Origin: Aphrocallistes beatrix | Taxonomy: Eukaryota; Porifera; Hexactinellida; Sceptrulophora; Aphrocallistidae | Direction of reading: 5' to 3' | NCBI GenBank assembly: GCA_963281255.1 | Contig: OY725501.1 | Location: 1,155,674 to 1,219,673 of the forward strand | Length of the DNA stretch: 64,000 nt | Shown here: positions 11,201-64,000 of the stretch, in pieces | How the letters are laid out: every line of letters starts with the position of its first letter | How positions within the stretch are numbered: the stretch's first letter is position 1 | Notes under the pieces: generated by a model | What the model was told of the DNA's origin: nothing | Database searches by the model: none | What the model saw: only the letters and a program-made list of their open reading frames with translations | Made by a program: the position numbers and the translations under genes

Positions 11201-11364
11201 ATCTATATCGTCACTGTGCAAAGTTTGCTTTGAGCCGTTTATTTGCGGATTAATCCCGATTGGTTCAAAAGATAATTGAATTTCATCCACTTTGCCAATA
11301 TTCTTAACTACTGAATCAGAATTAGAATAGAATTTTAGAAGCAAAGAATTTCCAAGCCTTGAAC
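8300..11364 (-). CDS. CPSF1: CPSF1, coding exon 3 (C-terminal 1020 residues)
   Basis: CPSF1 (CPSF160) is the scaffold of the nuclear complex that recognises the AAUAAA signal and cleaves pre-mRNA 3' ends. This exon carries most of the protein: GSRLGNSLLLKF at the start, STMILQTGQEILELD, GYSGVFICGAYPHFVF, LRCTAHFVAYHLESK, PLTKNKLKLLYDKEQMGP, GMRLIRHADIHIGSHINT and the end IIDDLMDIERITCFF, each aligned by memory with human CPSF1. Propeller-forming MMS1_N/CPSF_A regions fill it. The acceptor is TCTATAG before GTTCAAGG (exon start 11364); the first two bases complete a Gly codon from exon 2. Open frame continues upstream to 11500, but that stretch is intron plus an HLE-1 end, so I do not use its ATG. 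The three exons give 1399 residues, against about 1443 in human. No break is seen. Confidence 0.95.
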
Positions 11365-11519
11365 CTATAGAGTAGAGTCTCAGAAACAAGTACATAAATG
11401 TATACATACAAATATCTTCATCTGTCATAAATATATTTAATATTTTACTTAGTGGGGCCATAGCGAAAAAAAAGGTTTCTGTGGCTGGCAGTTTTTCCAA
11501 TCAATTCGTTGCATATATA

Positions 11520-12737
11520 CAGGGTGACAATTAAGTTCTGTTACAAGCTTCATTACGTATAAAATTTATTATACTCAAACGATCTTAGTTATTATGGTCC
11601 TTAGAGATTGTAATTCGAATATTATGATTTTAAAAGATTTTTCGATTCTGACTTTGAAATGTGTTTTGCATGGCAATATGGCAAAGAAAAAAATGTGTCC
11701 TGGCACGGAGCGAAAATCGTGAATCTACTGCTTTTCAACTACTGCTTTTCATTTTTTACTGCTTTTCAAGTTATCTTCAAAGAGTCTTCAAATTCTAGCA
11801 AAAATTAGCTCACACATTTTCCTCGAACACTCTAAATTTGTAGATATAGGATGCTCAGATCAGTGCATTTTGAGGATCATTTGGATCAGATTTTTTTATG
11901 ATGTGAAAAAGTGCAATTTTGGGGAATTTTGCAAAATGTACCTAATTTGAACTGCGAATGAATAACTTTTTCTCGTTTCTGATAATCAATTCAGTGGATT
12001 TATGAAATATTTATATGGCGAATGAAAGGTATCTGGTGCTAAATCGTCATGGAACATCGATTATGAAGACATTTTTTACAGAAGCAGTGGGCCCTGATTC
12101 GCGATTTTCGCTGCGTACCAGGACACATTATTTTTTCTTCAAACTCGCCATACAAAACATATTTCTAAGTCTTAGAATCAGGGTTGGCAGGTTTTGTCCA
12201 CTTGGACAAAACCTAGTGGTTTTAACCAGGTTAAAACCGTCCTGTCCAAAACCTCTTGAATGGACAAAACTGGACAAAACCTCAAAATTTAATTTAATTC
12301 ATAAATTCACAGTTATATCGAAGTTTATTCAAAGTTTAGTCCAGGTTTTGTCCAAGTGTTGTTCGTGGCTTCCATGATAAATCGAATACAAAATATAGTT
12401 ATAGTAATAAACAGGAGTTAGCAAGAAAATCCATTCATTGTCCTCACTCTCTTTCCATCTTAAACTGTTTCGTACCCACTGCAATGATTTACAGTTTCCA
12501 TTAGGTTTTGTTCAGTTTTGTCCGGTTTTAACCGGTTAAAACCAGGTTTTGTCCACTGCCCTGTCCAAAACCTGTTTTGGACGGACAAAACCCAACCCTG
12601 CTTAGAATCGAAAATTTTTTTGAAATCATTGAAAATATTCGAACTACAATCTCTAAGGACCATAATAACTAAGATCGTTCGAGTATAACAAATTTTATAC
12701 TTAATGAAGCTTGTAACAGAACTTAATTGTCACGCTG
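11520..12737. mobile_element. Mariner-type foldback element
   Basis: Ends CAGGGTGACAATTAAGTTCT and its inverted copy finishing TAATTGTCACGCTG, flanked by TA. The arms are long: GGTCCTTAGAGATTGTA at 11596 returns inverted near 12650, and TGTGTCCTGGCACGGAGCG near 11694 returns inverted near 12115. No coding capacity is seen. A second member lies at 63071-64000. A hAT MITE (12179-12600) is inserted in the right arm. Confidence 0.8.
12179..12600. mobile_element. hAT MITE, 8-bp TSD CTTAGAAT
   Basis: Inverted ends CAGGGTTGG...CCAACCCTG, flanked on both sides by CTTAGAAT (12171-12178 and 12601-12608). The interior is built from repeated and inverted GGTTTTGTCCA/TGGACAAAACC blocks. Ends and 8-bp duplication are diagnostic of hAT. 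Confidence 0.9.
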
Positions 12738-17396: not shown

Positions 17397-18742
17397 CAGT
17401 TTGTCTCATAATTATTTAGAATTTGATGTTACATTTCAATCCATAGTCGATCTTACTATTTTAAGTTCAATACTCACTAAGTAGACGTAAATAAGTGAAA
17501 TAGTCTCTAAAGTTTACTAATTTGAATTTTTTTTACATTTCATTAGTTTGAGAATTTGCTCTCTCATCACGATGACGTCATAATTAAATAATTTGGTATA
17601 TTTTCCTTCCTAAGACTTTATAGCCTTCTAGTGTTTTTTGAATAGCATTTCATGGCTCAGAGAATAAAGCGAGACCTTGTTCGAACGCTATTAGAGACCA
17701 ACAAGTTGAGCCCAAAGGAGATCAGTGAGGAGGCTAGCGTTTCATTGGCAACGGTTTACAATGTGAAAAATAAACTGAAAGCAGGGGACTCACTTGAACA
17801 TGCAAAAGGTGGGGGCAGACCTGGGGATAAACAGCACCAAATCGCTCGTTCTGTTGCTCAATACATCAAACAAGATGATGCTAGATCTGTTCGCGAAATT
17901 GCCTCTGAAATAAACAATAAAGGGGGGTTATCTGTGTCGAAAGACACCGTACACCGTTGTTTGAGAAGAATGGACTATTCGAAGCCCAAGCCATACACTG
18001 TACCGATGTTGTCCAATAAGAACCGGCTTAAGAGGCTAGATTGGGCTAAAAAGAACAAAAGGAGGATGTGGTCCAGGGCAATATTTGCTGATGAGGCTTC
18101 ATTTTGGCTTTCTAGGGGAAAAATAAGGATGTGGACAAAAAGCGGTCAAAAAAAGCCCCAGTATTCAGTGAAGCACTCGGCAAAAGAACACGTTTGGGCA
18201 GCCTTTTCTTCCATGGGAACCTTCCCCTTGTGCGTTTTCACCCAGAATATGGATACTACTTTGTATCTAAAAATCCTTGAATGGCATTTGTTGCGACAGG
18301 CAGAGGCATTCCACGAGAAAAGGTGGTACTTGGTTCAAGACAACGATCCGAAACACACTTCACGTCTTGCCAAGCGATGGATGGATGAAAAAATGCCGAA
18401 CAAACTCTTAGATTGGCCAAGTCAGAGCCCAGACGTCAATCCCATCGAAAATATCTTTGGCTGGTTGAAATATCAACTTGCAAGATCACGCCCAAGAACG
18501 ATTAGCGAACTCAAGGCGAAGTTGGTTAACATTTGGGAGAGTCTTAGTCCGAAATTTCTTGAGCCCTATTGGAAATCGATGCCTAAAAGATGCCAAATGT
18601 TATTAGATAATCAAGGAAACAAAATTAAATATTGAACTACATATATTTCCGAATAGTTTGGCATATCGATCACTTTATTTAGTCGAATGGATGTTGTCGT
18701 TATAGTAATTTTTATGATTCTAAATAATTATGAGACAAACTG
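17397..18742 (+). mobile_element. Tc1/mariner element, complete, 1346 bp
   Basis: Inverted ends of 26 bp begin CAGTTTGTCTCATAATTATT at both sides without a visible mismatch; TA duplicated at 17395-17396 and 18743-18744. One uninterrupted transposase gene fills it. The perfect ends and open frame suggest a young, possibly still active copy. Confidence 0.95.
17652..18635 (+). CDS. Tc1-like transposase, 327 residues, intact
   Basis: It cuts and pastes its own element at TA sites. The N-terminal third (residues 1-110) holds two helix-turn-helix units (KEISEEASVSLATVYNVKNK and VREIASEINNKGGLSVSKDT) joined by a GGGRPGDK hook. The catalytic core follows: IFADEASFWLS (first Asp), LVQDNDPKHTS (second Asp) and SPDVNPIENIFGWLK (Glu). 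I count 35 residues between the second Asp and the Glu, one more than in Tc1 itself (34), so it is DD35E. Length is normal for Tc1 (about 340). The start at MAQRIKRDL is the first ATG in frame. It lies antisense to CPSF1, in intron 2. Confidence 0.93.
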   Translation: MAQRIKRDLVRTLLETNKLSPKEISEEASVSLATVYNVKNKLKAGDSLEHAKGGGRPGDKQHQIARSVAQYIKQDDARSVREIASEINNKGGLSVSKDTVHRCLRRMDYSKPKPYTVPMLSNKNRLKRLDWAKKNKRRMWSRAIFADEASFWLSRGKIRMWTKSGQKKPQYSVKHSAKEHVWAAFSSMGTFPLCVFTQNMDTTLYLKILEWHLLRQAEAFHEKRWYLVQDNDPKHTSRLAKRWMDEKMPNKLLDWPSQSPDVNPIENIFGWLKYQLARSRPRTISELKAKLVNIWESLSPKFLEPYWKSMPKRCQMLLDNQGNKIKY

Positions 18743-22827: not shown

Positions 22828-24934
22828 GTGCCTAGAATGTCCACTAAATCACAAATGTCATGCCATTATCCAACCTCTAACCGCATTGTTTCGGTTGGTG
22901 CACATAGGCCTAGAGGAATGCGGTTACTTGACATGGACATTCTGTCCGATGTTTTCGCGTGTCTCAAATGTTCGGACTGCGGAGGTCACTTAGAACTTTA
23001 CGAACATCCGTGGGAACATGGATGGAATACGCGTTTTTTTGTGAAATGTAGCCGTTGTCTCCTAGTTGTTTCAGAGTTTCCTTCCTCCAGACCTCTTGAG
23101 AAGCCAAGGAACGAAACATGTGTCAATGTTTCCCTTCCAGTCAGAGAAATGACGGATGTTACTATGCGTTCCGTACTCGCTGTACTCTCTACTGGAATGT
23201 CCTGGAGAGATCTCTACAAGTTTTCCACAATCTTTGATATGCCTCCACCTCTTAGACATATGCCTACGCGATATATCGAACGCTTGGATACCCTTGGAAC
23301 CCAGGCATGCCATATCTCTATGCTCTCCGCAGCTCAGAATTTGAGATCGCGAGTCGACGCACAACCATCTCCTGAGTCTAAAGCGATCAATGTTATCGTT
23401 AGCTGTGACAGTTCCTGGAAGACTCGAGGCTTTTATTCCAACATTGGCTTCGGATCTGTTATTTCCACAGTGTCGAAGAAGGTTCTGGATTTCGAGCTTC
23501 TTAGTCGGCTTTGTGAGAAGTGCGGAACATGGTCAGCGGCAAAGCGAGAATCTGAACCCGAGAAGTACAGTCAGTGGCTTGAATTACACCGGCCTCATTG
23601 CATGAAAATTTTTGAGGGATCTTCGCAGGCAATGGAACCAGAGGCAACTCGACGCATTTGGGCTCGGTCTTGCCTATTCGATCTTTGTCGGGGGTGGTGA
23701 TTCTAAAGCATATCAAGCTGTCTCTAGTATGAATCCTTATCAATTTATCAAATTAAGTAAGCAGGAGTGTACCACTCATGTAACAAAACGACTTGGAAAA
23801 CATTTAAAAAAGATAAAAAATAACACGAAAAACCATACATACATACAACATCACCTAACAGAAGACAAGGCAAATTATATTTCATCTAATTATTCGACTG
23901 TAGTCTTCCAGAATCGGGGTAAATCAGCGGATTCTATTTCACAGGCCTTATGGATTTTAGTTTCTCACGTCGCAGGAGATCATAATAAATGTCCAGATGG
24001 GTCAGCATCCTGGTGCCGATGGAAACTAGCCGAAACTACTGGTTCAATCGCTCCCCCAGCTGTTACAAATTTTTCCACCTTGGAAATTGCGAAAGTTGAA
24101 GAGACATTCCAACTATTTGCTATCGAGTTTTGTAGTCATCTCACTCATGGTTTGAATCAGAATGCCAATGAATCACTCCATAATACTATCTGGAGTTTGA
24201 TTCCCAAGAGTCGATACGTGTCTCCACAGTCAATTCGTGTTAGCGTCAAGTTTGCTATCCTGATTTTCAATGAAGGCGAAGCTTTTATTTATAAGCTCAT
24301 GGCAGAGCTAGGATTGAATCCCTCTGAGAATATATACTTTAAAGCAATGAACCGCGAAAATGAACGCAGAAGGAATGCTAGTCGTCAGGTCGGGGCCAAT
24401 GTCCAACGACGAAGGAGGCGTCTTCGTAATATGAAGCTACATCGTGAAAGAGATATACAGAAAAAAGAGGGTGGGCCAAGTTATTTAAGTTCATCATTTG
24501 GTTCAGAGAGTAGTGTTGGAATATATTCTGGTCCTAGCTCTTCGAGAGGTCGTAGAACTTCTCTTCGTGGAACCAGGAAGGTTGTAACACGAGGAAAGAC
24601 ATCGATAACAGCACGCGAAGAGAGGAATATCGTTTCGGTTTCTTCTCTTCGGTCCAAGAGGAGTCTTTTTAGCTCGTCAGATGAGTCTCCAGGGTATCAT
24701 AGCTCTGTTGAGGATATTTCTAGTCCTAGTGACGTTAGTGAGGATGACAAAACGTGCTATTTGTGTGACCTTGAATATCACCCAGTTCTCAATAAGCGTC
24801 AAATTGGTCGTAAAGAGAGTGTTGATTGGCTCAGATGTGTTAGGTGCTCTGGATGGTGGCATTTTTATTGCGTGGATGAGTCAAGAGTCAAAGACCGCAA
24901 TCAATGGATTTGCGAAGTATGTCCACAGAAATAA
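22828..24934 (+). pseudogene. Kolobok/Mutator-like transposase with C-terminal PHD finger, one frameshift
   Basis: The first frame (22828-about 23665) has LKCSDCGGHLELYEH...CSRCLLV (zinc-binding), INVIVSCDSSWKTRGFYSN (first catalytic Asp region), SKKVLDFELLSRLCEKCGTW and FEGSSQAMEPEATRRIWARS. The second frame (from about 23670) continues LAYSIFVGGGDSKAYQAV (second Asp), then KCPDGSASWCRW, NANESLHNTIWSLIPK (Glu region) and a basic, Ser-rich linker. It ends in a C4HC3 PHD finger, CYLCDLEYHP...WLRCVRCSGWWHFYC...WICEVCPQK (24750-24931). One single-base shift within about 23660-23680 separates the frames. Upstream, 22467-22760 codes a Ser-rich segment with a KKGRPF hook in a third frame, perhaps the true N-terminus. 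Fusion of a PHD finger suggests chromatin-guided targeting (inference). Confidence 0.8.
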
Positions 24935-27541: not shown

Positions 27542-27718
27542 TAAACAAAACTTTCGCCCTTATACTCCACCTGGATGCTGTGCCCCACCATAAGAAAATC
27601 CTGGATACGCCAGAATCGATGCGGACTCAAAAAAATTGAGCATAACCCTAAACATTTCAATTAATAAAAGACGTAAGCAATAATATTTGAAAACATAATC
27701 AGTATATGATTGACTTAC

Positions 27719-28345
27719 CAAAGAACAAATGATGCGATCCAATCAAACATATAGATGTACACAAGACAGAACTAGCCGTTTTTTCAAAATGAATCTTTTT
27801 CATTTTTCGCATGTCATCTGTAATTAAATGAACAACATATATATCACCTTCCTTAGAAGACAAAACAAGTTTATCAGGTTCAGAAAGATATGTATAACGA
27901 GAACAGTCCAATGAAATTACAATATTTTCGTCATACTCCATGGGAAAATCGGTATTGTTATCAGTAAATGAATTGAGTGATAAACCATAGGACGGAACTC
28001 CTTGATTAAGATGAATAACACAATTAGCTCCTAAAACTAACACACCACCAATTGGCTTATATAGAGAAATTAGACCAAAAGAATCACATGGTAAACTAGG
28101 AACTGACCAAATTACCGGATTAGATTGATCATTTAGATTAAGTGATACAGCTAAAAGCTTGACATTATCTTTTCTAGATTTAACAATACCAATCCAAGTA
28201 TTAATAGGGGAATATAAAAATACTAAAGTTGGTTCACCATATCCATGTAAAAACTGAAAATCCAAAACATTGGACAAGGAAATATCAATATCTTTAAGAT
28301 TTATAACATATGAATGTAATGGTGAAGGAAAAGAGGTGTCTTGAC
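27719..28345 (-). CDS. CPSF1: CPSF1, coding exon 2
   Basis: 627 nt, residues 170 to 378. It starts with GT (completing Gly) and reads QDTSFPSPLHSYVINLKDID, VLDFQFLHGYGEPTLVFLYS, NPVIWSVPSLPCDS, KPIGGVLVLGANCVIHLNQG and ends TSICLIGSHHLFFG. Human CPSF1 has the matching LPSYIIDVR, LQFLHGYYEPTLLIL and PIGGVVVFAVN in the same order. The acceptor TTCAAATATTAG has a good pyrimidine stretch and a CTAAC branch-like motif upstream; the donor is TTTG before GTAAGTC. This is part of the N-terminal MMS1_N-type propeller region. The true 5' end lies 68 nt above the first ATG of the frame. Confidence 0.95.
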
Positions 28346-28989: not shown

Positions 28990-30746
28990 CTAATGCGATA
29001 TCTGACATTGTTTCTGTTTGCACAAAGTGTCAATGTCTGCTCGTGTATTTGATGTCGCAATCCGCAAGACTCCTGATAGATGATTATCTGTTAAGAGTGA
29101 TCTAGACTTGCTTTTGACATTTTTCATCATTGAGAACAGCTGTTCACAGGAATTAGTGCTGCCAAATAAGGAAATGAACTTTAGGGCGTGTTGTGATAAA
29201 TTAGGAAATATACTAGCTGATTGAACATATTGACCGTAGAATGTCACAAGGTCAGTCTCTGCAAAAGCTCTCTTCATCTCAGAAATATTCTGCATTTCAA
29301 TTAGTTCTAGTTGGAACATATCGGGAGCATTCGTGGCATCAATTCCAAACGGATCTGCAAACAACTTCATTTCAGTAAATCTGTCACTAAAGTCCGAAAA
29401 TCTTAGTTCAAATTCATTGATTAAGTAGTTGATCAGTGCGGAATACTTAACATGATCCACTGTTTCACTTTGTCTTGTAGATAAAGTTGAGAAATGCACA
29501 ATATTTTTCAAATTAAATTGTTGATGAAATAACTGTAGCTTGTTAATGAACGCTTTGAAATGCTCATACAGGTTGTTAATGAATTGCTTTTTTCCTTGCA
29601 GTTTCAGATTTAATTCCATGAGATACTTGGTAATGTCAACTAGGAATGCGAGATCATTCAACCACTGATCATCATCCAGAAAGCTTGCATCCTTTCCTTT
29701 GATGGTAATGAATGTTTTTATTTCTTCAAGTAGTGACCAATATCTGGCTAGAGTAGACGCTCTACTGAGCCAGCGAACATGACTAAAGTAAATAACATCG
29801 TTATTGTCTGACCCTACCTCTGCAAGAAATGCTTGGAATTGTCTGTGATTGAGTCCCTTCGACCTTATAAAATTGACTGAATTAACAACATTCTCCATCA
29901 CATGTTTCATTTCTAAGGTCTTTGCACAAAGTTGTTCTTGATGAATAATGCAATGGTATGTCATGATAGGAAAGGGCATTGATTTGAGCATTAGGCTGAC
30001 AAAAGCTTTGTGCTTTACAGTCATAGCAGGAGCTCCATCAGTTGTTAGACCACTTAGCTTATCATCTGCAAGGTTGAATTTCGTAAAAACACGTTTTACT
30101 TCATTGAAAATATCTAGTCCGGTGGTTGTGTCTTTCATTGGACCTCGTACAAAAATTGCCAGTTGAGCTGTATCGCTTACATCGGTGCTTTCATCAAGGG
30201 CTAAGTTGTAAAATTTGCAAGCATGGAGCCGTTTAATTAGTGAAGATTCGATGTTGGATGTTAGATCATCTACTCTTCTAGCAACAGTTTGGTGTGAAAG
30301 ACTGGTGCTCTCTACTGTAGACTTCTTATCTGGGCATGCCACAGATACAAATATGTCCAAGCAATCTTTTACAAATTCCCCTCCAGATAATGGTTTTCCT
30401 CTCTTGGCTATCGCTTCTGATATTAGAAAGCTGATCTTAGTTGCTGTTTCAGAACTTAATTTAGCAGTTTTGAAGTAAGATTGTTGACTGGTAACGCTAG
30501 CTTTCAACAGATTCACCCGATCGATTCTAACCTGCCCTGTAAGGTTGTAAATTTAACGGCATGTTTAGTAGAATAGTGTCGTTTGATATTATATTCTTTG
30601 AATACGGATATCTTCTCCTGACATATCAAGCACAATAAGCACTCATTGTGCTCTACAACGAAAAAGTCAAACGTCCAAGAGGATTTGAAAACTCGACATT
30701 CATGATCAATTTTCCTTTTCTTTCCAATACTTACGGGAGTGGACAT
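28990..30746 (-). pseudogene. hAT transposase, ZBED5/GTF2IRD2-like, one frameshift
   Basis: The N-terminal frame (30746-about 30535) has HNECLLCLICQEKISVFKEY and NIKRHYSTKHAVKF, a BED finger C-x2-C...H-x4-H. The second frame (30516-28990) gives TSQQSYFKTAKLSSETATKI, EAIAKRGKPLSGGEFVKDCL, LALDESTDVSDTAQLAIFVRG (first Asp), GLTTDGAPAM (second Asp), YHCIIHQEQLCAK, SHVRWLSRASTLAR and the C-terminal FGSTNSCEQLFSMMKNVKSK (Glu, dimerisation). A shift near 30520-30540 (LQGR then RIDRVNLL) separates the two; otherwise 508 codons are open. It lies in CPSF1 intron 1 on the same strand as the host gene. Confidence 0.88.
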
Positions 30747-36274: not shown

Positions 36275-36620
36275 TTAAAAATAGAAATTTCAGTTTTTCC
36301 ACTATAACTCAGCCATTTTTGGTGATAGGAGGCTGAAATTTTAAGAGAATGTGTATATTAATATACCTCACATATGATGCAACAATCATCAAAAAATGAT
36401 GACTCATCACTTTCTAATGACGCCATCATTACGCATCAAAATTTTTAAAATTGACAAATTTGCTGATTTTTCGTGCGATATCGATTATAACAGTAGGACA
36501 GATGTATTTAGGATGGAATCTCCCTTATTATTAATCAATGTGACCTCACGCGCCCGCAGGGCTCTTCCGGCGGACATAGTGTCCGCCAGCCGCGGAGCGC
36601 AAGCAAGCGAAGCGCGCTTG
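36275..36620 (+). mobile_element. HLE-1 copy I, head missing
   Basis: Starts inside the body (TCCACTATAACTCAGCC), has GATGACTCATC, ATCGATTATAACAGTAGGAC and all three tail hairpins, ending with GCGAAGCGCGCTTG at 36620. It lies 65 bp inside the CPSF1 intron 1 donor. Confidence 0.85.
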
Positions 36621-36686
36621 TATTAATAAAATCATGATTACAGCGATGATTCATTGTATATGAAGGAAATATCAATGTGAAATCAC

Positions 36687-37194
36687 CTGTTTTATTTGGA
36701 TCAACGTGTATGTCAAAGCTTGAAAATGGAAATATTGCTAAACGTTTCCCATGAAACAACATCACAGAACATCGGTTAAGAGGATCAGATCTAATTTGAG
36801 GACGAAATAAATTCTCCTTAAAACTATCCTTTAAATCCTCTTCTTCAAATTGATGAAGGGAGAGAGTACGAATGTCATGATTTGCTGCATCCCAATCAAG
36901 AATTGATAATTTCGCATCAAAAAATGAAATCATTAAGCAGTCTAAACTTTTAGACCTCTGATAAATTCGCACAGATAAGAGAGACTGAATATTACCAAAA
37001 AGAGAACAGTCATGGACAAGTTCTAATTTTGTCCTACCTTGTGGAGAAAGTGGAGTAGAAGAATTCAAATTAAATATCCGTAGTCGATTTGCCCCTGCAA
37101 CGACCAAGCTTTCCATATTAGGTGATATAAAATTACAAGATATGACATAATCAATAGCAGTAGGAAGGAAAACTGTCTTTGCAAAAGTGTACAT
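36687..37194 (-). CDS. CPSF1: CPSF1, coding exon 1 (N-terminus)
   Basis: 508 nt, residues 1-169 plus one base. The start MYTFAKTVFLPTAIDYVISC aligns with human [20 protein letters not shown]. Then LVVAGANRLRIFNLN, FGNIQSLLSVRI, MISFFDAKLSILDWDAANHD, RTLSLHQFEEEDLKDSFKEN and MLFHGKRLAIFPF. The donor is AAAACAG before GTGATTTC; joining to exon 2 gives Lys-Thr-Gly-Gln-Asp. The open frame runs on past the donor into an HLE-1 tail, which is not protein coding. No intron is seen before residue 169, so the gene is much poorer in introns than vertebrate CPSF1. Confidence 0.95.
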
Positions 37195-38583: not shown

Positions 38584-39139
38584 CAAGCGCGCTTCGCTTG
38601 TTTGCGCTGCGCGGCTGGCGGACACTTTGTGTCCACCGAAGGCTCCCTTCGGTCACCTGGAGGTGACATTGGTTAATTATAAGGGAGATATCATATCTAA
38701 ATATGTCCATCTTAGTTTTAAAATCGATATCACTCGAAAAATGACCAAATTTGTCAATTTTTATAATTTGATGAGTAATGATGACGTCATAACAAAGTGA
38801 TGAGTCATCATTTTTTGATGATAGTTGCATCATATGTGAGGCATGTTAGTATAAAGATTCTATTAAAATTTCAGCCAGCTATCTCCTATAATGGCTGAGT
38901 TATGCTCGAATAACTGTGTTACTTAACTTTTAAAAATGTGACAATGACGTCATAATTCCATGATGAGTCGACATTTTGCTCTGAACTCAGAACTTACTGG
39001 AGCCATAGCCAAAATACTCCCACATGCCAAAAATCAGCTTTCTGCGCCCGGCAGTTTCTTCAATCAATTCGTTACAGATATATATATATATACAGTATAC
39101 ATAAACAAACAAACAATAATCGAGTTTTAATAGTAAAGA
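38584..39139 (-). mobile_element. HLE-1 copy L, full length
   Basis: Terminal hairpin CAAGCGCGCTTCGCTTG at 38584, head ending AGTAAAGA at 39139. TGACGTCA at 38782-38789 and 38945-38952, TGAGTCA at 38801-38807. Its head abuts the tail of copy M with no base between. Confidence 0.95.
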
Positions 39140-39687
39140 CAAGCGCGCTTTGCTTGATTACGCTGAGCGGCTAGCGGACACTTTGTGTCCGCCGGATGCT
39201 CCCTTCGATCGCATGGATTCACATTGGTTCATTATGAGGGAGATAGCATCTCTAAATATGTCTGTCCTACTGTGATAATCGATATCACTCGGAAAATCAC
39301 CAAATTTGTCAATTTTAAAATTATTGATGCGAAATGATGACGTCATAACAAAGTGATGAGTCATCATTTTTTATGATAGTTGTATCATATGTGAGGTATG
39401 TAAGTATACATATTCTATTAAAGTTTCAGCCTTCTATCTCCTATAATGGCTGAGTTATGCTCGAATACCTCTGTTGCTTAACTTTTAAAAATGTGACAAT
39501 GACGTCATAATTCCATGATGTGTGGACATTTTGTTCTGAGCTCAGTACTAGCTGGAGCCATAGCCAAAAGACTCCCACATGCCAAAAATTAGCTTTCTAT
39601 TACCGGTAGTTTCTTCAATCATTTCGATACAGATATATATATATATATATACACAAATAAATATTAATCGAGTTTTAATAGTAAGGA
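39140..39687 (-). mobile_element. HLE-1 copy M, full length
   Basis: Tail hairpin at 39140 (CAAGCGCGCTTTGCTTG), head ending AATAGTAAGGA at 39687; a typical 548-bp copy. TGACGTCA at 39338-39345 and 39500-39507. Confidence 0.95.
39338..39363. promoter_or_regulatory. CRE and AP-1 type sites inside HLE-1 (example)
   Basis: TGACGTCA (39338-39345) and TGAGTCA (39357-39363) lie 11 bp apart; a second TGACGTCA is at 39500. These are the exact consensus sites of CREB/ATF and AP-1 bZIP factors. The same trio recurs in copies G, L, N, Q and, with one change, T. Use in vivo is not shown. Confidence 0.5.
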
Positions 39688-44837: not shown

Positions 44838-47829
44838 AAATGCCCCTTCTAAAGACTAAACGTGGACGTTCTTGCGAGAAACGTTTTGATAGTGATGCGC
44901 AGCGTAAGAAATTTGCGGTTGAGTGATGCCTCGGAGGCAAGGAAAGCCTTCCTTATGCGCCAAATGGAATACCAGGCTGCTCATTACGCGAATCAGAGCT
45001 CTCAGGAGAAAGCTGAGCGACTTGAAGCGCAGGTGGAATACCAGACTCCTCATTTCGAGAAGCAGAGCTCTCAGGACAAAGCTGAACGACGTAAATCGCA
45101 GTTGAGATACCAGACTGCTCATTACGCAGAACAGTTCTCTCAGCAGAAAGTTGTGCGGCTTGAAGCGCAGCTGAAGTACCAGACTGCTAGGAATATAAAG
45201 CAGTGCTCTTTACAGAGGTCTGTTCGCCTGAGATATCAGAGAACGTATCAGTTAGCCAAGAATAGAGGTAAAACTAACTTTACATTTCTTAATATTGCAC
45301 GTTCTATGCAAGTAACTGAAACTTCTGATGACATAATTGACGAATTTTCAGTTGACCGGATGGAATATCACTGTTCACATTGTAGTGCTAAATTTTGGGA
45401 GAATGAAAAACTCTCCACTAGCACTAAGGACGACTTCAAGTTTTCCCTCTGCTGCGGACAAGGAAGGTGGTTATTCCCTTCTTACCTTCTCCTCCTGATT
45501 TACTGATGCATCTGCTGACGGCTACTGACAGTCGAGGCTGAGCATTCAGAGAACACATTCGAGCTTATAACTCGGCTCTAGCGTTCGCTTCACTCGGAGT
45601 TAATCTCGATAAAGAGTTAGCTAGCGCTAGGCGCGGAGTGTACACATTTCGTATCCATGGTGTTGTGCATCATTACATTGGGCAGCTAACTCCTCGAGCG
45701 GGAGAAACTGCTTCATTTGCACAAATTTACATCCATGATGGTACTCCTGAGGGAGAGCTGGAGAATCGCCAGCGACACCTTGGAGATGCGAGTCTCCCCG
45801 AACTGCAACTACTGCAGAACTTACTGCATGAAGTAAACCCCTACGTCTCTTACTCAGACAAGGTATCGATATGATGAGAGACAAGGGGGGAGTAGACGTT
45901 AGGATGACCATCAGAGCTGATGGTGCACCAGATCCGAGACGCTATAACGCTCCAACTGCTCCCGAAATAGCAGTCATAATGCCTGGAGATGGCTACACTG
46001 AAGGTGTGGCTACCAGGGATATAGTGCTGCATGCACGTACAGGAGGTTTAAAACTTATCACTGAAACCAATTGTGCATACGATAGCCTCCTTATGTTTTA
46101 TTGTTTCCTTCAGGAGATAACGGCTGGCATCTGGGCAGGGTTTCATCCAGCTTTCCAAAGTCATACGCCTAAATGGGCGCCACCATTTTTCTACGCGCCT
46201 AAACTCTGCATTTTTATAAATGTTTTATGCCACGCGCCTAAGTAGGCGTATGCCGCGCGCCTAAATCATACGCCTAATTATGATCCATGGGACCAAATAC
46301 GCGCCTCTAGGACGCGCCCAGTACGCCTGGATGAAAGCCTGCATCTGGGCATTCCCCACAGTAGAGGGAAAGGCTGTGTATGGAATTCTACTCTTACCGC
46401 CTGATGGTGAGGAGCTCGCTGAGCTATCTGCATCTCTTTGGCAGACTGTTCCACCAGTATATCGTGGACATGTACGCTAAAGTTGAGCAGCAAAGGTTGA
46501 ACTACATAAGTTAAACCAGGAAAAGATCAAAGTGGATCTATACAAAGGCCTGGCCGATGCAGTATCTGCAGGTGACGTCAATCCTATGGCGTATGGAAAG
46601 AGGATCATACTACTTTCTTCCTTCACTGGCAGTCCTCGACAGATGTTCGAGCTCTATCAGGACAGTATGTCTATCGTACGGAAATACGGTAAACCTGATT
46701 TATTTATTACATTTACATGTAACCCGAAATGGGAAGAGATTTCTTCTGCTCTTTTATTGAATCAGAAAGTGACTGACCGTCCAAACTTAACTGTAAGAGT
46801 ATTTAGAATGAAATTGCGTGAATTGCTTAATGACATCTGCGTTAAGCATGTTCTAGGGAGACCACTCGCGCATGTATACACCATCGAGTTTCAAAAGCGT
46901 AGTCTCCCTCATGCACACATCCTGATCATCCTATCTGATCAGGATAAACATAGAGATCCAACTATGTATGATAAGATAGTCTGTGCTGAGATTCCTGACA
47001 AGGATCTCAACCCCAAACTTTATCACATTGTAAAGTACTGCATGATCCACAGCCCATGCGGCGTATTAAGGAAACATGCTGCCTGTATGCGCGATGGAAA
47101 ATGCAGCAAGAAATACCCCAAAGTATTTTCTCAGTTTACCACAACCGGTAATGACAGCTATCCTATGTACAAACGTCGAAATAACGGCCGTACAGTTATT
47201 GTGAATGGAATTCAGCTGGACAATAGGTGGGTTGTTCCATACAACCCTTATTTACATTTGAATATAATGCTCATATAAATATTGAGATTTGCTCTACCAT
47301 TAGTGCTGTTAAATACCTCTACAAGTATGTGTATAAGGGCCATGATAGAGCTATTGTCGAATTTCGCATTGGTGATAGTGCTGGAAGTAACAACAACAAA
47401 GCAACCATGGACGTCGATGAGATTGTCAATTATCTTGAAGCGCGTTATGTTTCTGCTACTGAATCATGCTACCGACTCTTTGGGTATGAACTTCATGCTA
47501 ACTTACCACATGTCATGAGGTTAGCTCTCCATCTGGACCATCACCAGCCTGTCGTGTTTACCGGAGATTCTGATTTGCTGGAGGTTCTTCGTAGACAGAG
47601 GGATACCACCCTTACAGGATGGTTTTTGGCAAACCAAAAATACCTTAGTGCTCGCAAGCTCACATACACCAACTTCCCTGATGAGTTTGTGTGGAATAAA
47701 TCCAAACGTGAGTGGACCGAAAGGTTAAAAGGACATGGTGACATGTTAGGTCGTGTCTATTCCGCCCGTCCAGGTGAAGGAGAACGTTACTTTAACCAAG
47801 GAAGATATTGTATAGGATTCAGAATTTGA
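44838..47829 (+). pseudogene. Helitron Rep protein, broken, no helicase
   Basis: Starts MPLLKTKRGRSCEKRF at 44838. A head with repeated (S/R)xEKAERLEAQVEYQT units (44980-45220) is followed by the zinc motif YHCSHCSAKFWENEK...LCCGQG, FREHIRAYNSALAFASLG, YTFRIHGVVHHYIGQLTP, DGAPDPRRYNAPT, then DLYKGLADAVSAGDVNPMAY, DLFITFTCNPKWEEI (motif 1), FQKRSLPHAHILIIL (HUH motif) and VKYLYKYVYKGHDR (the two-tyrosine motif). This is the Helitron nickase/ligase. Frame changes occur near 44925, 45465, 45870, around the MITE at 46136, at 46500 and at 47250. Confidence 0.88.
46136..46341. mobile_element. hAT MITE (CATCTGGG TSD) inside the Helitron
   Basis: Ends CAGGGTTTCATCCAG and CTGGATGAAAGCCTG; CATCTGGG on both sides (46128-46135, 46342-46349). 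Interior GCGCCTAA/TACGCC motifs as in 41645-41834. Confidence 0.85.
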
Positions 47830-50803: not shown

Positions 50804-51347
50804 TCCTTACTATTAAAACTCGATTAATATTTGTATATATCTATCTATCTATCTGTTACGAATTGATTGAAGAAGCTGCCACGCGCAGAAAGCTGATTTT
50901 TGGCATGTAGGAGTCTTTTGGCTATGGCTCCAGTAAGTTCTGAGCTCAGAGCAAAATGTCGACTCATCATGGAATTATGACGTCATTGTCACATTTTTAA
51001 AAGTTAAGCAAAACAGTTATTCGAGCATAACTCAGCCATTATAGGAGATAGAAGGCTGAAATTTTAATAGAATCTGTAAACTAACACGCCTCACATATGA
51101 TGCTACTATTATCAAAAAATGATGACTCATCACTTTGTTATGACGTCATCATTACTCATCAAAATTTTAAAAATTGACAAATTTGGTGTTATTTCGAGCG
51201 ATATTGATTTTAAAACTAAGATGGACATATTTAGAGATGATATCTCCCTTATAGTTAATCAATGTCACCTCCAGGCGACCGAAGGGAGCCTCCGGCGGAC
51301 ACAAAGTGCCCGCCAGCCGCGCAGTGCAAGCAAGCGAAGCGCGCTTG
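50804..51347 (+). mobile_element. HLE-1 copy N, full length, 544 bp
   Basis: Head TCCTTACTATTAAAACTCG after AAGAA, a TATC microsatellite, AATTGATTGAAGAAGCTGCC, body with two TGACGTCA (about 50978, 51140) and GATGACTCATC, three tail hairpins, terminal CGCGCTTG at 51347 followed by T. A good reference copy. Confidence 0.95.
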
Positions 51348-51490
51348 TATCGATTATAACAGTAGGACAGGCATATTTAGAGAGGCTATCTCCCTTATAA
51401 TTAACTAATGTGACCCCAGGCGACCGAAGGGAGCCTCCGGCGGACACAAAGTGTTCGCCAGCCGCGCAGCGCAAGCAAGTGAAGCGCGCT

Positions 51491-51492
<2 letters not shown>
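51348..51492 (+). mobile_element. HLE-1 partial O (tail repeated in tandem)
   Basis: From TATCGATTATAACAGTAGG to a second terminal hairpin at 51492: the last ~145 bp of HLE-1 only. Confidence 0.9.
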
Positions 51493-51521
<29 letters not shown>

Positions 51522-52014
51522 GTAACGAATTGATTGAAGAAACTGCCGGGCGCAGAAAGCTGATTTTTACCATGTGGGAGTATTTTGACTATGGCTCCAG
51601 TAAGTTCTGAGTTCAGACCAAAATGTCGACTCATCATGGAATTATGATGTCATTGTCACATTTTTAAAAGTTAAGCAACACAGTTATTCGGGCATAACTC
51701 AGCCATTATAGGAGATAGAAGGCTGAAATTTTAATAGAATCTGTATACTAACACACTTCACATGTGATGCAACTATCATCAAAAAATGATGACTCATCAC
51801 TTTGTTATGACATCATCATTATTCATTAAAATTTTAAAAATTGACAAATTTTGTGATTTTTCGAGTGATATCGATTTTAAAACTAAGATGGACATATTCA
51901 GAGATGATATCTACCTTATAATTAACCAATGTTTCCTCCAGGCGACCGAAGGGAGCCTCCGGCGGACACTTTATGTCCGCCAGCAGCGCAGCGCAAGCAT
52001 GCGAAGCGCGCTTG
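51493..52014 (+). mobile_element. HLE-1 copy P, head lost
   Basis: TA microsatellite, ACGAATTGATTGAAGAAACT, body and tail to CGCGCTTG at 52014. Third unit of a head-to-tail series. Confidence 0.9.
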
Positions 52015-52064
52015 TGGTAATAATAACAGAACAAGTAATGTAGGAAATATTAGTTCCAGTTGTA

Positions 52065-55000
52065 TCATGAGAAAATCATTGAGAACCTATGAGCTATAAT
52101 GTTTAACTTGACGATCGTGTTTTTTGCTGTTGTTTTATCTCGATCGATTTTCTTCAATTTGATCGATGTATGGGGAAGGTGGTATAGCGTGGGAAAGGCC
52201 AGAGGATAATTGTGTTGGGTCGTTAGACATAATTCGTTATTTGGGTTACCTTCTCGAAGGTGGTGGATCATTGGTGACTCGATGATCATGGTCATACGGG
52301 TCGGAGTTCGGAAGTCGATTGGTATTAGGCAAAGGGTTTGCCATCGAACTTCAGGGTTGGAACGCAAATGGGCCGAGATTCTATGGGTTGAGCGCCTTTA
52401 TCTGGTAACCATTGAGGTGGCACCAGTTTGTCCTACGTAGTAGGTTGTAGGGAGGCTTGGGTGGTGCAACAAGTACACCATTCTGAGATGTGAGCATGGT
52501 GCGAAGGGGACTGCGATCTTCGTGTGGAAAAGCTGGAAATAACTAGTGGAGATGAGAAACCTTTTCATGCAGTTGTAATGGTTGTGGTCGAGCGAATGCT
52601 TGGGGAATGAGTAAGTGATAATCGATTTGGCCGTAGCCAGGGGTATCTTTGGGCGGAAGTGAAAGGGGGATCGTTCGAGTGGGGCCAATTGTTTGTGGGT
52701 GGGTCTGTCATTAGAGTAATGGCCGCGGAATGGGGGAGTAGGTTAGTCGTATCATCCGGAAATAGAAAAGTTATGTGATGTCAGCCGTGATGTCAGAGGG
52801 TTGATGACCAGCGCTTATTAAGGCGGGGGGTATCTTTGAAAAAATTGGGTTAGCGCGATATCGAGGTCGTAGCGATAGCTAGGAATCGATGTACAGCTTC
52901 TCTATATGAATTAAGGACCATTTTCCTGGAGGGGCCAGAGGATGTTGTGACATGCAGTGGGACTGGCTCGCGGTGTTCTTGAGTTAAGGTAATGAATGAC
53001 TTAGTGGTTGAGTCGTAAAGAACGTCTTGGGTGCGGTTATCTGGTCCGACCTCTAGTTCATAGGGGGCGAGTAAATCATGAGGTATAGGAAATGTGGAAG
53101 CTACGTCATCGAAGAAAAGTGTGAGTATTTCACCTGGTGGGGCTTGATAGTCGCGTAACAAGAACGCTGTAAACATTCTTAATAGCTCGGGAGCTAAGGG
53201 TAGTCCCATAGGGATTCCTGTGTTTCCATGGTGGTAAAAGTGATAACCATTCGTGACATAATTCATTTGAGTAGAGCTTTGAGAAGGGGTGACAATGACT
53301 TTTGCTGAACTGGACAGAAACACTCAAATGCGTCCATGATGAGTTGGTGGGGTGTCGAAGGATATTTCCTCATATCATATGAACAAGCGCGCTTCGCTTG
53401 CTTGCGCTGCGCGGCTGGCGGATACTTCGTGTCCGCCGGAGGCTCCCTTCGGTCGCCTGGGTTCACATTGGTTAATTATAAGGGAGACATCTCTAAATAT
53501 GTCCATTTAGTGTTAAAATCGATTTCACTCGAAAAATCACCAAATTTGTCAATTTTAAAATTTTTGATGCGTAATGATGACGTCATAACAAAGTGATGAG
53601 TCATTATCTTTTGATGAAAGTCGCATCATATGTGAGGTATGTTAGTATACAGATTCTATTAAAATTTCAGCCTTCTATCTCCTATAATGGCTGAGTTATG
53701 CTCGAATAACTGTTTTGCTTAACTTTTAAAAATGTGACAATGACGTCATAATTCCATGATGAGTCGACATTTTGCTATGAACTCAGAACTTACTGGAGCC
53801 ATAGCCAAAAGACTCCCACATGCCAAAAATCAGCCTTCTGCGCCCGGCAGTTTCTTCAATCAATTCGTAACAGAGAGATATATATACAAATATTAATCGA
53901 GTTTTAATAGTAAGGATATATATATTGATTGGGCTTCGTTGAAGCAGACCAGGGATACAGTTTCATAAACATCTTCAACTAGGAAGCGTGACTGTTTGAT
54001 AACTCGTGTTAGTAGTGGTTGGAAAAAGATTTGCGTGTTGTGAGAGAGGGGCTGATTGATTATGGGTCTTGTGTGGCGACGAATGGTAGCAATATCAATT
54101 GTGATTTGAAAGATGGCAGCTGAGAAGACCAGTGTCACCTTGAAGGTAGGTTTGTGTGTCTTATATTTGAAATATAAGGTTGGACAGCGGTCATCGGTAT
54201 AATACGCTTTATTGGAGTCGGGGTGGGAAAGTAATTTTCGTAATTCGTTTCAATCATCTTGGTATTTAGCCGGAATCACGCGAGTAGTTTCACACTGAGG
54301 TAGGATGCGTAACCTATACTAGTGTCGACTTATGAATGACGACTAGGCCATGACCCTTGTCTACCTGGAATAATGTTAGGTGGAGAGATGTCAATGATGA
54401 CCTAATTTGGGCGACGAGATTTCCATGGGTTTTGTGGAACTTTCGAATCCAGCTGTGTTGGGAAAAGCGTGTGAGTGGCGGGACTCCTGTTGGGAGATCT
54501 AACAATCCCAGGATTGGTGTCGTGAATTGTTGTTCTGGGAGTGGTCCAGGGGTCTGATAGGCAATTCCGAAACAAAGGAGTTTTTGGAGCAAGGCACCGA
54601 GCTCAGGTGGTATGTGGGACTCTAGGAATACTGGCGGTGGGTTGTACTCGAAGTGAGTGGGAAAAGGAGAGGGTGGTTGGATTACTTTTGATGGTGATCC
54701 GGGGTTACATGAGTAGTGGTGTAAAGCGATTTGAGCAGGTGATCACATAGGCGACATCCATGTGTTTCATACATGTAAAGCGGGAGGGAGGACGATACTG
54801 AGGCCAGTCGCCCTCCTCTAGTGAAAATTTGGGATCCGGGCATGCTCCAGATTGTCTCTGCGCGGCGTGAGTTTGAACTCTTACGATCTCCAGAAGGAGG
54901 GGGCGGTGATAATGGGGCGGTGATAATGGGGCGGTTACAAGTACCACCTTTGTACTTTGGCGTTCGATTCTTAGTGCATCTGCGTGGGCTGGGGCCACAG

Positions 55001-55075
55001 TATAAGTGTGAGCTGCGTTATTCGAGGTCCTAGTACGTCCGCACCTGCGACAGAGTCCGTAGACTTTACATGCGA
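52065..55075 (-). mobile_element. Penelope-like element, broken
   Basis: In minus-strand order: CMKHMDVAYVITCSNRF (about 54750), QVDKGHGLVVIHKSTLV (54330), PTLYFKYKTHKPTFKV (54190) and IRRHTRPIINQPLSHN, then after an HLE-1 insertion YHHGNTGIPMGLPLAPELLR (53220), ILTLFFDDVASTFPIPH (53110) and finally TTYYVGQTGATSMVTR (52440). The ADKxxGLVV, PKTHKP-like, GIPMGLPLAPEL and FDD series is a Penelope-type reverse transcriptase and YVGQTG is the core of the GIY-YIG endonuclease expected behind it. Several breaks are present. The region is less AT-rich than its surroundings. Confidence 0.75.
53384..53916 (-). mobile_element. HLE-1 copy Q, full length, inside the Penelope-like element
   Basis: Tail hairpin from 53384 after ATGAA, head ending AAGGA at 53916 before TATATATA; the insertion is again between A and T. 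TGACGTCA at about 53577 and 53740. Confidence 0.93.
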
Positions 55076-55151
55076 CCAGTGTGACTTCTGAGAGGCACCT
55101 TCATTTTCATTTCGTTTATTTGTCATTTGCCTGTGCTTTAAGGTGAACAAA

Positions 55152-56778
55152 ATGCCAACTTATGAAATTATAGAAGGGAACAGGGAAAATTCTCAGGTAT
55201 GTCAGCGAATCATATTTATAGTCTAAGGAAAAGGAGAAACTACAAAACCGATTCTTTAAATGAATAGAATTTAGGAAAGGATGCCCTGGTCGTGCTTCTC
55301 TAAATTTGCAAACAGATCAATTTTCGGTTACAAAACGCATGACAACCAAATAGTTCATGCAAATGTTGATGTCTTGAAATTAAAAACAACTCTCAAGAGG
55401 AGAGCAGAAGATTCTCAGGGGACAATTAGAGATATTCTTGACGATAAAGCAAATTCCTCAAGGGTTGGTGGACAGGTTAGTTTTGTGAATTTGGAGAGTA
55501 CCATGTACAAAAGACGAAGATTAAATTCGCAAAATATACCTCGCGATGCAGAAGAAACTATTTTTTTATTTAGCAATTGTGGTGAAGAATACACAAGCTA
55601 CTTAGCTTTCATAATCAATGAACATGTCAGTGAGGAAATTGCCGCTGGTTTTATGAGTCGGAAGTGGTTTGATACTCTGCAGTTTGATTCAGAGACGCTA
55701 ATTCAAGCTGATGCTACATTATATGTCGTTCCTAAATAATTTTACCAGCTATTGAACATTTTTCTCCAGTATAAATATTATTCTTTACCTGCCTTTAATA
55801 TCCTGATGTCTCGCAATACCAGCTCGCTCTATGAAAAAATAATACTCAAGGTTAAAGAAATCCTTCCATTTACAGCATCAGGAATAATTACTGACTTTGA
55901 AGAGGAAATGTTTTAGGTATTTTCCACGGGATTTCCAGAAGCTCCTGCAAGCGGTTGTCGATTTCATCATAAGAAGGAAATTTATAAGGCTGGAATATTA
56001 AAGAATGGGCTGTCGAGTCTGTACGCATCTAACGAACAATTTAACACCTGGGCTCAACAGTTGCTAAATTTACCTCTCCTCCCTTCAGACAAAATTATGG
56101 ACACGTTTTATTTGCTTAAAGAATCAAAGCCTGAACTGCTACAACTAGAGAACGCTAAAGATACTGGTTACGCCAAGTTGTTCCATCACGAATCTCTGTA
56201 TTTCAGAATGAGAAGCGGACAACAAATGATTTAGAAAGCTTCCATGCTAAATTGAAAGGGAAATTTAGATCCCACCATCCCAATTTTTGGGAATTTATTA
56301 AAAAGATGAATTCAATAATTCAAGCCACTGAAAAATATATGGAATGAATTAATCAAGGCTTGTCAATCCGACGAAATTCAATGAGACCACTAACAATCCA
56401 AATAAGAATAGCTATAGAAATGTTTCATCAAAGGTTAATGAGTGGAGAAATAACATGTTTAAATTATCTCATTTGTCATAGTTTTCAAACAAATATTGAA
56501 TATTCTGACCTCTGATGGATACAAATGAATTTGAATTAGAATCAGAGATTGAGGACAATGAAGAGACTGTTCTTCAACCTGGAAGCTTCAACGAAAATGC
56601 ATTAAATCCAAGAGCATGTCGCGTTTGTCTAATAGCAAATGATGATATTGTTATTCTTCCTTGCAGTCAAGCACAGGTTAGCTACTCCTGTGCTGAAAAA
56701 TTAACTACTACGAACAACTCAAAGCATTGCCCGATTTGCAGGGGAGAAGTTGAACAATACTTTCAGATGTTTTTGTGA
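55152..56778 (+). pseudogene. MULE transposase with C-terminal RING finger, decayed
   Basis: A first exon MPTYEIIEGNRENSQ (55152-55196) ends at a good donor (CAG before GTATGT); a 78-nt intron ends TTTAG at 55274 and ERMPWSCFSKFANRSIFGYK continues in frame. Then FDSETLIQADATLYVVPK (first Asp region), and in broken frames YYSLPAFNILMSRNT, IITDFEEEMF, GCRFHHKKEIYKAG, LESFHAKLKGKFRSHHPNFW, the MULE core in usual order. At the end (56515-56778) ACRVCLIANDDIVILPCSQA...CPICRGEVEQYFQ is a C3HC4-type RING. Stops at about 55737 and several shifts up to 56350 make the copy dead. Confidence 0.72.
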
Positions 56779-63070: not shown

Positions 63071-64000
63071 CAGGGTGGCCCATAAGTTCTGTCCCAAGCT
63101 TTATTAAGTATAAAATTTCTTATACTCAAACAATATCAGTTACAAGCGCGCTTCGCTTGAATGCGCAGCGCGGCTGGCGGACACTTTGTGTCCGCCGGAG
63201 GCTCACTTCGGTCGCCTGGGGTCACATTGGTTAATTATAAGGGAGATAGCATCTCTAAATATGTCTGTCCTACTGTGATAATCGATCGATATCACTCGAA
63301 AAATCACCAAATTTGTCAATTTTAAAAATTTTGATGCGTAATGATGACGTAATAACAAAGTGATGAGCCATCATTTTTTGACGATAGTTGCAGCATATGT
63401 GAGGTATGTTAGTATACAGATTCTATTAAAATTTCAGCCTTCAATCACCTATAATGGCTGAGTTATGCTCGAATAACTCTGTTGCTTAACTTTTAAAAAT
63501 GTGACAATGACGTCATAATTCCATGATGAGTCGACAATTTGCTCTGAGCTCAGAACTTACTGGAGCCATAGCCAAAAAGCTCCCACATGCCAAAAATCAG
63601 CTTTCTGTGACTGGCAGTTTCTTCAATCAATTCGTTACATATATATATATAAATAAATATTAATCGAGTTTTAAAAGTAAGGATTATTGTCCTTAGAGAT
63701 TGTGTTTCGAATACTTTTAACGATTTAGAAAGATTTTTCGAGTCTGATACCTAGAACTGTGTTTGTACGGTGAGTTTGGTGAATAAAAAATGTGTCCTGG
63801 CTCGCAGCGAAAATCGCGAATCAGAGGCCACTGCTTTTCGAATTATCTTTCTAGAGTCTTCAAATTCTCGGAAAAAATAACTCTCACATTTTCCTCGAAC
63901 ACTCTAAATTTGTAGAAATATACGATGTGAAGATCAGTGCATTTTGAGGACAAATTGGATCAGATTTTTTTGTGCTGTGAAAAAAAGTGCCATTTAGGGA
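63071..64000. mobile_element. Mariner-type foldback, second copy, runs off the edge
   Basis: CAGGGTGGCCCATAAGTTCT after TA at 63069-63070, then AAGCTTTATTAAGTATAAAA, and beyond the HLE-1 insertion TTGTCCTTAGAGATTGTGTT, AAATGTGTCCTGGCTCGCAG and TTCCTCGAACACTCTAAATT, all matching 11520-11920. Confidence 0.85.
63143..63683 (-). mobile_element. HLE-1 copy T, full length, 541 bp, with known empty site
   Basis: Begins CAAGCGCGCTTCGCTTG after AGTTA and ends AAAAGTAAGGA before TTATTG. The uninterrupted sister at 11586 reads TTAGTTATTATGGTCC, so the host site was AGTTA/TTAT and nothing was duplicated. Confidence 0.96.

What the first reader, a model, noticed from the sequence alone, without database searches (positions are those of the whole stretch)
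63143..63683. A built-in empty site fixes the ends of HLE-1 and shows Helitron-type A/T insertion
Seen: the mariner-type foldback occurs twice, once with an HLE-1 copy inside (63071-64000) and once without at that point (11520-12737). Lining up AGTTATTATGG (11586) with AGTTA...TTATTG shows the inserted piece starts TCCTTAC and ends CGCTTG, lies between A and T, and made no target duplication. Copies N and Q also lie between A and T. Known: Helitrons insert at A/T, start with TC and leave no duplication, but their 3' hairpin usually lies ~10 bp before a CTRR end. Here the hairpin forms the very terminus and the last four bases are CTTG. Inference: a Helitron-like family with an unusual 3' end.
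Basis: partly seen in the sequence, partly recalled or inferred. Interest (0 to 1): 0.8.

Follow-up and report, generated by a model that had tools for sequence, protein, structure and literature searches.

The report
Helitron with an unusual 3' end
A 541-base non-coding jumping gene, present in thousands of copies in this 100-megabase genome, is a Helitron that inserts cleanly between A and T and is very probably moved by full-length Helitrons found in the same genome; its GC-rich, multi-hairpin tail ending in CTTG is an uncommon version of a known design.

Summary
Read on the minus strand, the element at 63683-63143 starts TCCTTAC, ends CGCTTG and sits between A and T in a mariner-type foldback whose uninterrupted copy is at 11520-12737. 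The genome holds at least 6449 matching 5' ends and 7355 matching 3' ends. Of 44 paired copies examined, 43 lie between A and T and one between G and T. Seven have non-self empty sites without target duplication, three of them in TA-rich sequence.

Likely autonomous partners exist. Family A (1970-aa Rep-PIF1-OTU protein, collinear with bat Helraiser over 1321 aa) and family B (1959 aa, OTU) carry related termini. Several B copies begin with the HLE-1 body minus its last ~14 nt. So HLE-1 belongs with canonical Helitrons, not Helentron/Helitron2.

CTTG is not new (HELPO2 of Pleurotus). The tail of consecutive hairpins, the last able to pair flush with the terminus, is unusual, but a competing pairing that ends 2-5 nt earlier is nearly as well kept. 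Two extras: a position-specific target motif (A at +9: 47 of 54), and 171 direct head-to-tail junctions, which in a sample mostly look like separate insertions at resident 5' ends. New variant of a known kind.

The parts
63143..63683 (-). HLE-1 copy, 541 nt, non-autonomous Helitron (TCCTTAC...CGCTTG)
63659..63683 (-). 5' terminus (left terminal sequence); family consensus TCCTTACTATTAAAACTCGATTAAT
63143..63159 (-). terminal 17 nt CAAGCG-AAGCG-CGCTTG, possible flush hairpin ending in CTTG
63148..63171 (-). competing stem-loop ending 5 nt before the terminus (2 nt if extended by AGC/GCT)
63176..63196 (-). hairpin GGCGGACAC-AAA-GTGTCCGCC
63199..63217 (-). hairpin AGGCGACC-GAA-GTGAGCCT, imperfect (perfect 8-bp stem AGGCGCCC/GGGCGCCT in the family A copy L014)
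63071..64000 (.). mariner-type foldback interrupted by HLE-1 (runs to the window end)
11520..12737 (.). foldback without HLE-1 at the corresponding point (empty site near 11588 in one arm and near 12665 in the other)
38584..39139 (-). HLE-1 copy, downstream unit of a direct head-to-tail tandem (CTTG|TCTTTAC)
39140..39687 (-). HLE-1 copy, upstream unit of the same tandem
50804..51347 (+). full HLE-1 copy, followed by a 3' part of another at 51348-51492 and a near-full copy at 51503-52014
53384..53916 (-). HLE-1 copy, full length
46490..46927 (+). Helitron_like_N (Rep) match of a family A-like element inside the window, in broken frames

Best explanation
HLE-1 is a high-copy, non-autonomous Helitron of the canonical (Helitron1, Helraiser-like) branch. 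A Rep/PIF1-helicase protein from same-genome autonomous Helitrons (families A and B) very probably cuts at A|TC at the 5' end, copies through to the GC-rich multi-hairpin 3' end, stops after CTTG, and joins the copy into an A|T dinucleotide without target duplication. Shown here: termini, A|T insertion, empty sites, and same-genome Rep/Hel elements with related termini. Inferred: that these proteins move HLE-1, and that the terminal ~14-17 nt are the stop signal.
For: A|T in 38 of 38 one-piece copies (37 distinct) and 43 of 44 paired copies. Seven non-self empty sites (window copy, L030, L034, L035, L041, L053, L054); L030, L035 and L053 are in TA-rich sequence. Three family A copies share A|TCTTATATATTAAAACTC...CGCACTTG|T, and their 3' 120 bp are 84-85% identical to HLE-1. 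The family A ORF of L014 has an HUH motif, a YxxxY pair and a Walker A motif, scores 1001 bits over 1321 aa against Helraiser, and has PIF1 and OTU domains. Three family B copies show an A|TCCTTACT start (L013, L080, L078). The one B copy read to its end (L013) finishes with a 147-bp 3' end 86% identical to HLE-1 and has an OTU domain. In 6 of 6 B copies that could be read there, the internal HLE-1-like module lacks the terminal GCGAAGCGCGCTTG, as expected of a disabled terminator.
Against: The 3' end is CTTG, not CTRR, and the hairpin position differs from the canonical ~11 nt upstream. No transposition was observed. The internal modules of B are decayed elsewhere too, so loss of their ends may be ordinary decay. 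In the B copy L079 the sequence upstream of HLE-1 position ~419 is unrelated, so the HLE-1 leader is not shown in all B copies. Only one Helitron protein (Helraiser) was available for comparison. The CTTG count (84 of 89) was made after dropping 21 of 138 hits that stopped more than 10 nt short of the end, so it leans to intact ends.
Confidence: 0.92

Rival explanations
1. HLE-1 is a Helentron/Helitron2-type element (DINE/HINE-like), where 3' palindromes and high copy number are also typical.
For: High copy number, palindromic 3' end and an OTU domain in the partners; OTU is described for Helentrons (PMC4067079, passages).
Against: A|T rather than T|T insertion. No asymmetric terminal inverted repeat: the longest exact match of the first 40 nt to the reverse complement of the last 160 is 6 nt. 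No endonuclease domain among the six Pfam matches of the family A protein. That protein aligns collinearly with Helraiser.
Confidence: 0.05
2. The functional 3' hairpin is not flush with the end: the stem GCGC..CGC/GCG..GCGC, ending 2-5 nt before the terminus, is the real one, and the flush pairing is a by-product of GC-rich repeats.
For: Family A ends keep this stem at 7 of 7 pairs while their flush stem has 5 of 6. The fold chooses it in three of the four ends folded (window copy, L014A, L013B).
Against: Over 89 ends the flush stem is complete in 73, the competitor in 58. In ends with a 2-nt GC insertion, picked by sequence alone, the flush stem grows to 8 pairs and is complete in 15 of 17, the competitor in 12 of 17, and the fold of one such end (L029) chooses the flush stem.
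Confidence: 0.45
3. Direct CTTG|TCC tandems are rolling-circle concatemers or circle dimers rather than separate insertions at resident 5' ends.
For: Helraiser makes precise head-to-tail circles (PMC4778049, passages). One pair (L092) is 99.2% identical, and L029, left out of the test because only 296 bp aligned, is 97.6%. With L029, 4 of 17 pairs exceed the 90th percentile of unrelated pairs.
Against: Mates with at least 300 aligned bases are no more alike than unrelated units: median 88.5% (16 pairs) against 88.0% (379 pairs), p 0.25; the median is 88.6% with L029 added.
Confidence: 0.22
4. HLE-1 is a cut-and-paste MITE with a short (TA) duplication.
For: 10 of 38 copies have a 2-base flank match.
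Against: 22 of 38 have none, the empty sites carry a single A|T, and no terminal inverted repeat longer than 6 nt was found.
Confidence: 0.02

Closest known systems
Helraiser / Helibat1 (bat canonical Helitron)
   Same: Rep (HUH, two tyrosines) plus PIF1 helicase, family A collinear over 1321 aa; TC 5' end; A|T insertion without duplication; AT-rich preference strongest on the 3' flank (PMC4778049, passages)
   Different: Helraiser ends CTAG with one 19-bp palindrome 11 nt from the end (same passages); here several GC-rich hairpins, the end is CTTG, and an OTU domain lies at the C terminus
HELPO2 (Pleurotus ostreatus Helitron)
   Same: A|T insertion and CTTG 3' end (PMC4289320, passages)
   Different: reported with a subterminal hairpin; fungal; no flush hairpin in the passages seen
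Helentron / Helitron2 / DINE-1 / HINE
   Same: high-copy non-autonomous repeats with 3' palindromes; OTU reported with Helentrons (PMC4067079, passages)
   Different: TT insertion, subterminal or asymmetric inverted repeats and (Helentrons) an endonuclease domain; none found here
FoHeli (Fusarium Helitron2)
   Same: a composite-element model by loss of internal termini, and one case of insertion 2 bp upstream of a resident 5' end (PMC5148889, passages)
   Different: asymmetric inverted repeats; ends ATTTT or CTCCTGT

Membership tests
Canonical Helitron (Helitron1) | autonomous partner with HUH/Y2 Rep and PIF1 helicase | tested here: met
   (family A, L014)
Canonical Helitron (Helitron1) | insertion between A and T, no target duplication | tested here: met
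Canonical Helitron (Helitron1) | 5' TC | tested here: met
   57 of 57 distinct 5' ends, chosen as alignments reaching base 1
Canonical Helitron (Helitron1) | 3' CTRR | tested here: not met
   CTTG in 84 of 89 distinct ends; CTTG is a printed exception in HELPO2, so filed as a variant
Canonical Helitron (Helitron1) | one 16-20-nt hairpin about 10-12 nt before the 3' end | tested here: not met
   several hairpins; the last is flush or ends 2-5 nt before the terminus
Helentron | endonuclease domain fused to Rep/helicase | tested here: not met
   family A protein only
Helitron2 / Helentron | asymmetric or subterminal inverted repeats | tested here: not met
   exact matches only, HLE-1 consensus
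Helitron2 / Helentron | insertion at TT | tested here: not met
Helitron (any) | circular or rolling-circle intermediate | not testable with these tools
   needs DNA assays

The most novel reading that the evidence does not exclude
This Helitron lineage uses a different stop architecture: a relay of GC-rich hairpins whose last member includes the terminal CTTG, so that losing the last ~14 nt alone turns a 541-nt element into the 5' leader of a 9.5-kb one. Its Rep also treats resident left ends as preferred landing sites, with an A-rich contact 9-11 nt downstream of the cut, building head-to-tail arrays by repeated insertion.
Probability: 0.3. Interest if true: 0.6.

Novelty: new variant of a known kind. 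Interest (0 to 1): 0.42.

Why it matters
How Helitrons recognise their 3' end and choose a target is only partly understood, and the direct evidence I saw comes from Helraiser. A genome with several thousand HLE-1 ends, likely autonomous partners, internal disabled terminators and 171 direct tandem junctions offers natural variation to test which part of the 3' end is the stop signal and whether left ends act as landing sites.

Tried and rejected
Strand bias: the listed places look strand-biased over several Mb of contig C1. An exact minus-strand match (L047, C1:4786259) is missing from the list, and the whole counts are balanced (3186/3263; 3629/3726). So the list is incomplete and I dropped the idea.

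Target mimics the left terminus: the left end scores only in the top 16% of A|T sites under the target matrix, so sequence similarity alone does not explain the tandems.

Upstream unit of a tandem younger: 11 of 17 scored pairs agree, p 0.10 (signed rank) and 0.17 (sign test), 8 of 25 junctions unscored; not established.

Covariation as proof of the flush stem: too few double changes. My first split of 17- and 19-nt ends used the pairing itself; I replaced it by a split on sequence alone. Helentron and MITE readings were rejected on the results above. One search translated the wrong strand and was not used.

Full report
What was checked. The window copy at 63143-63683 is an HLE-1 element on the minus strand, inserted in a mariner-type foldback; the related foldback at 11520-12737 lacks it. 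Joined flanks of the window copy match the empty foldback without a gap, with one A|T at the junction. Because element base 1 and the base after the 3' end are both T, the junction is certain only to within 1 nt.

Genome-wide. The window lies in an unnamed 100.5-Mb genome in 28 contigs; it is eukaryotic (a CPSF1-like gene, and a tyrosyl-tRNA synthetase nearest to the human cytoplasmic one among PDB chains; that those entries are the human enzyme is recalled). The 25-nt 5' end occurs 6449 times (up to 3 mismatches) and the 18-nt 3' end, flanking T included, 7355 times (up to 1 mismatch); the reversed control patterns gave 0. I fetched loci around the best hits, so the copy set leans to young, full copies. 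In that set and the window, 38 of 38 one-piece full copies are A|T (37 distinct) and 43 of 44 paired copies are A|T. The 44 include one duplicated locus and one 3' end used twice; the exception is the window copy 2148-1717, G|T. Among distinct flanks, 54 of 57 have A before the 5' end and 66 of 66 have T after the 3' end. The non-A flanks belong to L029, L032 and L042, which are direct tandem junctions, and to window 2148.

Empty sites. Eighteen of the 44 pairs had a match spanning the joined flanks. I count seven as non-self empty sites (window copy, L030, L034, L035, L041, L053, L054), of which L030, L035 and L053 are in TA-rich sequence. The other eleven match the copy's own end, a neighbouring copy's end or TA repeats, and were not counted. 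The database for this test was only the window and the loci fetched by then.

Likely autonomous partners. PF14214 gave 106 matches in the genome, many of them fragments. Family A (L014, L012, L009) has a 1970-aa ORF in L014 with HUH, YxxxY and Walker A motifs (motif meaning recalled), PIF1 and OTU domains, and 1001 bits over 1321 aa to Helraiser 7lcc. Its three copies begin A|TCTTATATATTAAAACTC and end CGCACTTG|T; in L012 the end abuts another family A 5' end directly. Family B (L013) has a 1959-aa ORF with a C-terminal OTU match and is 69% identical to A in DNA over about 4.1 kb. L013 begins with HLE-1 positions 1-496 and ends with a 147-bp 3' end 86% identical to HLE-1. An A|TCCTTACT start is also seen in L080 (continuous with L018) and, with deletions, L078; L077 carries positions 51-516 but its start is masked. 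L079 does not fit: upstream of position ~419 its sequence is unrelated. In 6 of 6 B copies readable there (L013, L018, L077, L078, L079, L026) the internal module lacks the terminal GCGAAGCGCGCTTG. Degenerate end modules without an intact terminus also precede the true ends of family A (three of three copies) and of L013. This fits read-through of a disabled terminator, as proposed for Helraiser (PMC4778049, passages), but these modules are decayed elsewhere too, so simple decay is not excluded.

The 3' end. In the 26-copy consensus the last 90 nt are 68% GC against 33% for the rest. Folding (DNA parameters requested; one search shows that they load on this machine) gives consecutive hairpins: AGGCGACC-GAA-GGGAGCCT, then GGCGGACAC-A/GAA-GTGTCCGCC, then the terminal part. 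The terminal part has two competing pairings. Over 89 distinct ends (138 hits, 21 dropped for stopping more than 10 nt short) the flush stem CAAGCG/CGCTTG is complete in 73 and the 7-pair stem that ends 5 nt before the terminus in 58; CTTG ends 84 of the 89. Split by sequence alone, 17 ends carry a 2-nt insertion that extends the flush stem to 8 pairs: 15 of 17 have it complete and 12 of 17 the competitor; for the other 72 the figures are 58 and 46. Of four ends folded, three choose the competitor and one the flush stem. Covariation is too sparse to decide.

Target motif. Among 54 distinct 3' flanks (12 of 66 removed as containing a 5' end or starting with a TA repeat), +1 is T in 54, +9 is A in 47 with no G or C, +10 is A or T in 53, and +11 is A in 36; p for +9 is 7e-15 against the local base composition. 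Upstream, -2 is T in 34 of 52. Helraiser's AT-rich preference is also strongest on the 3' side (PMC4778049, passage); the position-specific A at +9 to +11 may be a refinement. I did not see its published logo.

Tandems. Direct CTTG|TCC junctions number 171, and junctions with a TA spacer 14. From 13,529 oriented A|T sites in the 64-kb window, a rough expectation for landing on one of 6449 left ends is 0.03% of insertions, against 171/7355 = 2.3%, about 76-fold. I read 25 of the junctions (22 from 19 places picked by me from the list, 3 from earlier loci). In the 16 with at least 300 aligned bases the mates have median identity 88.5%, against 88.0% for 379 unrelated pairs, p 0.25. L029, with 296 bp aligned at 97.6%, fell under that cut; adding it moves the median to 88.6%, and 4 of 17 pairs then exceed the 90th percentile of unrelated pairs. 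So most of those scored look like separate insertions in front of a resident copy, with a minority that may be concatemers or recent duplications. The expected younger upstream unit is seen in 11 of 17, p 0.10-0.17: not shown.

Literature. Passages read by term search: PMC4067079, PMC4778049, PMC4289320, PMC6544945, PMC5148889; other papers were seen only as listings. CTTG is in print for HELPO2 and for truncated Helraiser insertions, and tandem Helitrons are known (PMC5148889, passages). The listings and passages from my searches showed no Helitron described with a hairpin flush with the 3' end; I did not read most of the listed papers, and the library lacks most subscription journals.

Verdict. 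The finding is real and well placed: a non-autonomous canonical-branch Helitron with a variant 3' end. The emphasis on CTTG is weaker than it thought, and the flush hairpin is possible but undecided.

Noticed in passing
window 8300-11500, 27699-28277, 36535-37194: A CPSF1-like gene on the minus strand: the first ORF has a Pfam CPSF_A match; I take the other two as further exons by eye (not searched). They are separated by about 16 and 8 kb containing transposons.
   Followed up: partly
window 17652-18635: Open 327-aa Tc1/mariner-like transposase reading frame (DDE_3, HTH_Tnp_Tc3_2).
   Followed up: no
window 28990-30516 and 23612-24934: A hAT-type transposase ORF (508 aa, match at the cut-off) and a Mutator-like transposase ORF with a weak PHD-finger match.
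   Followed up: no
L034, L036, L041: HLE-1 copies nested inside other HLE-1 copies at nearly the same interior place (around nt 270-290, judged by eye), a possible internal hot spot.
   Followed up: partly
L014 region, about 100 bp beyond the family A end (L067): A second 43-bp HLE-1-type 3' end lies downstream of the family A terminus, a potential alternative stop.
   Followed up: no
window 52001-56000: GC skew of 0.247, far above the other 4-kb blocks of the window.
   Followed up: no
L092 and L029: Adjacent HLE-1 units 99.2% and 97.6% identical, pairs in the tandem sample that may be concatemers or recent duplications.
   Followed up: no
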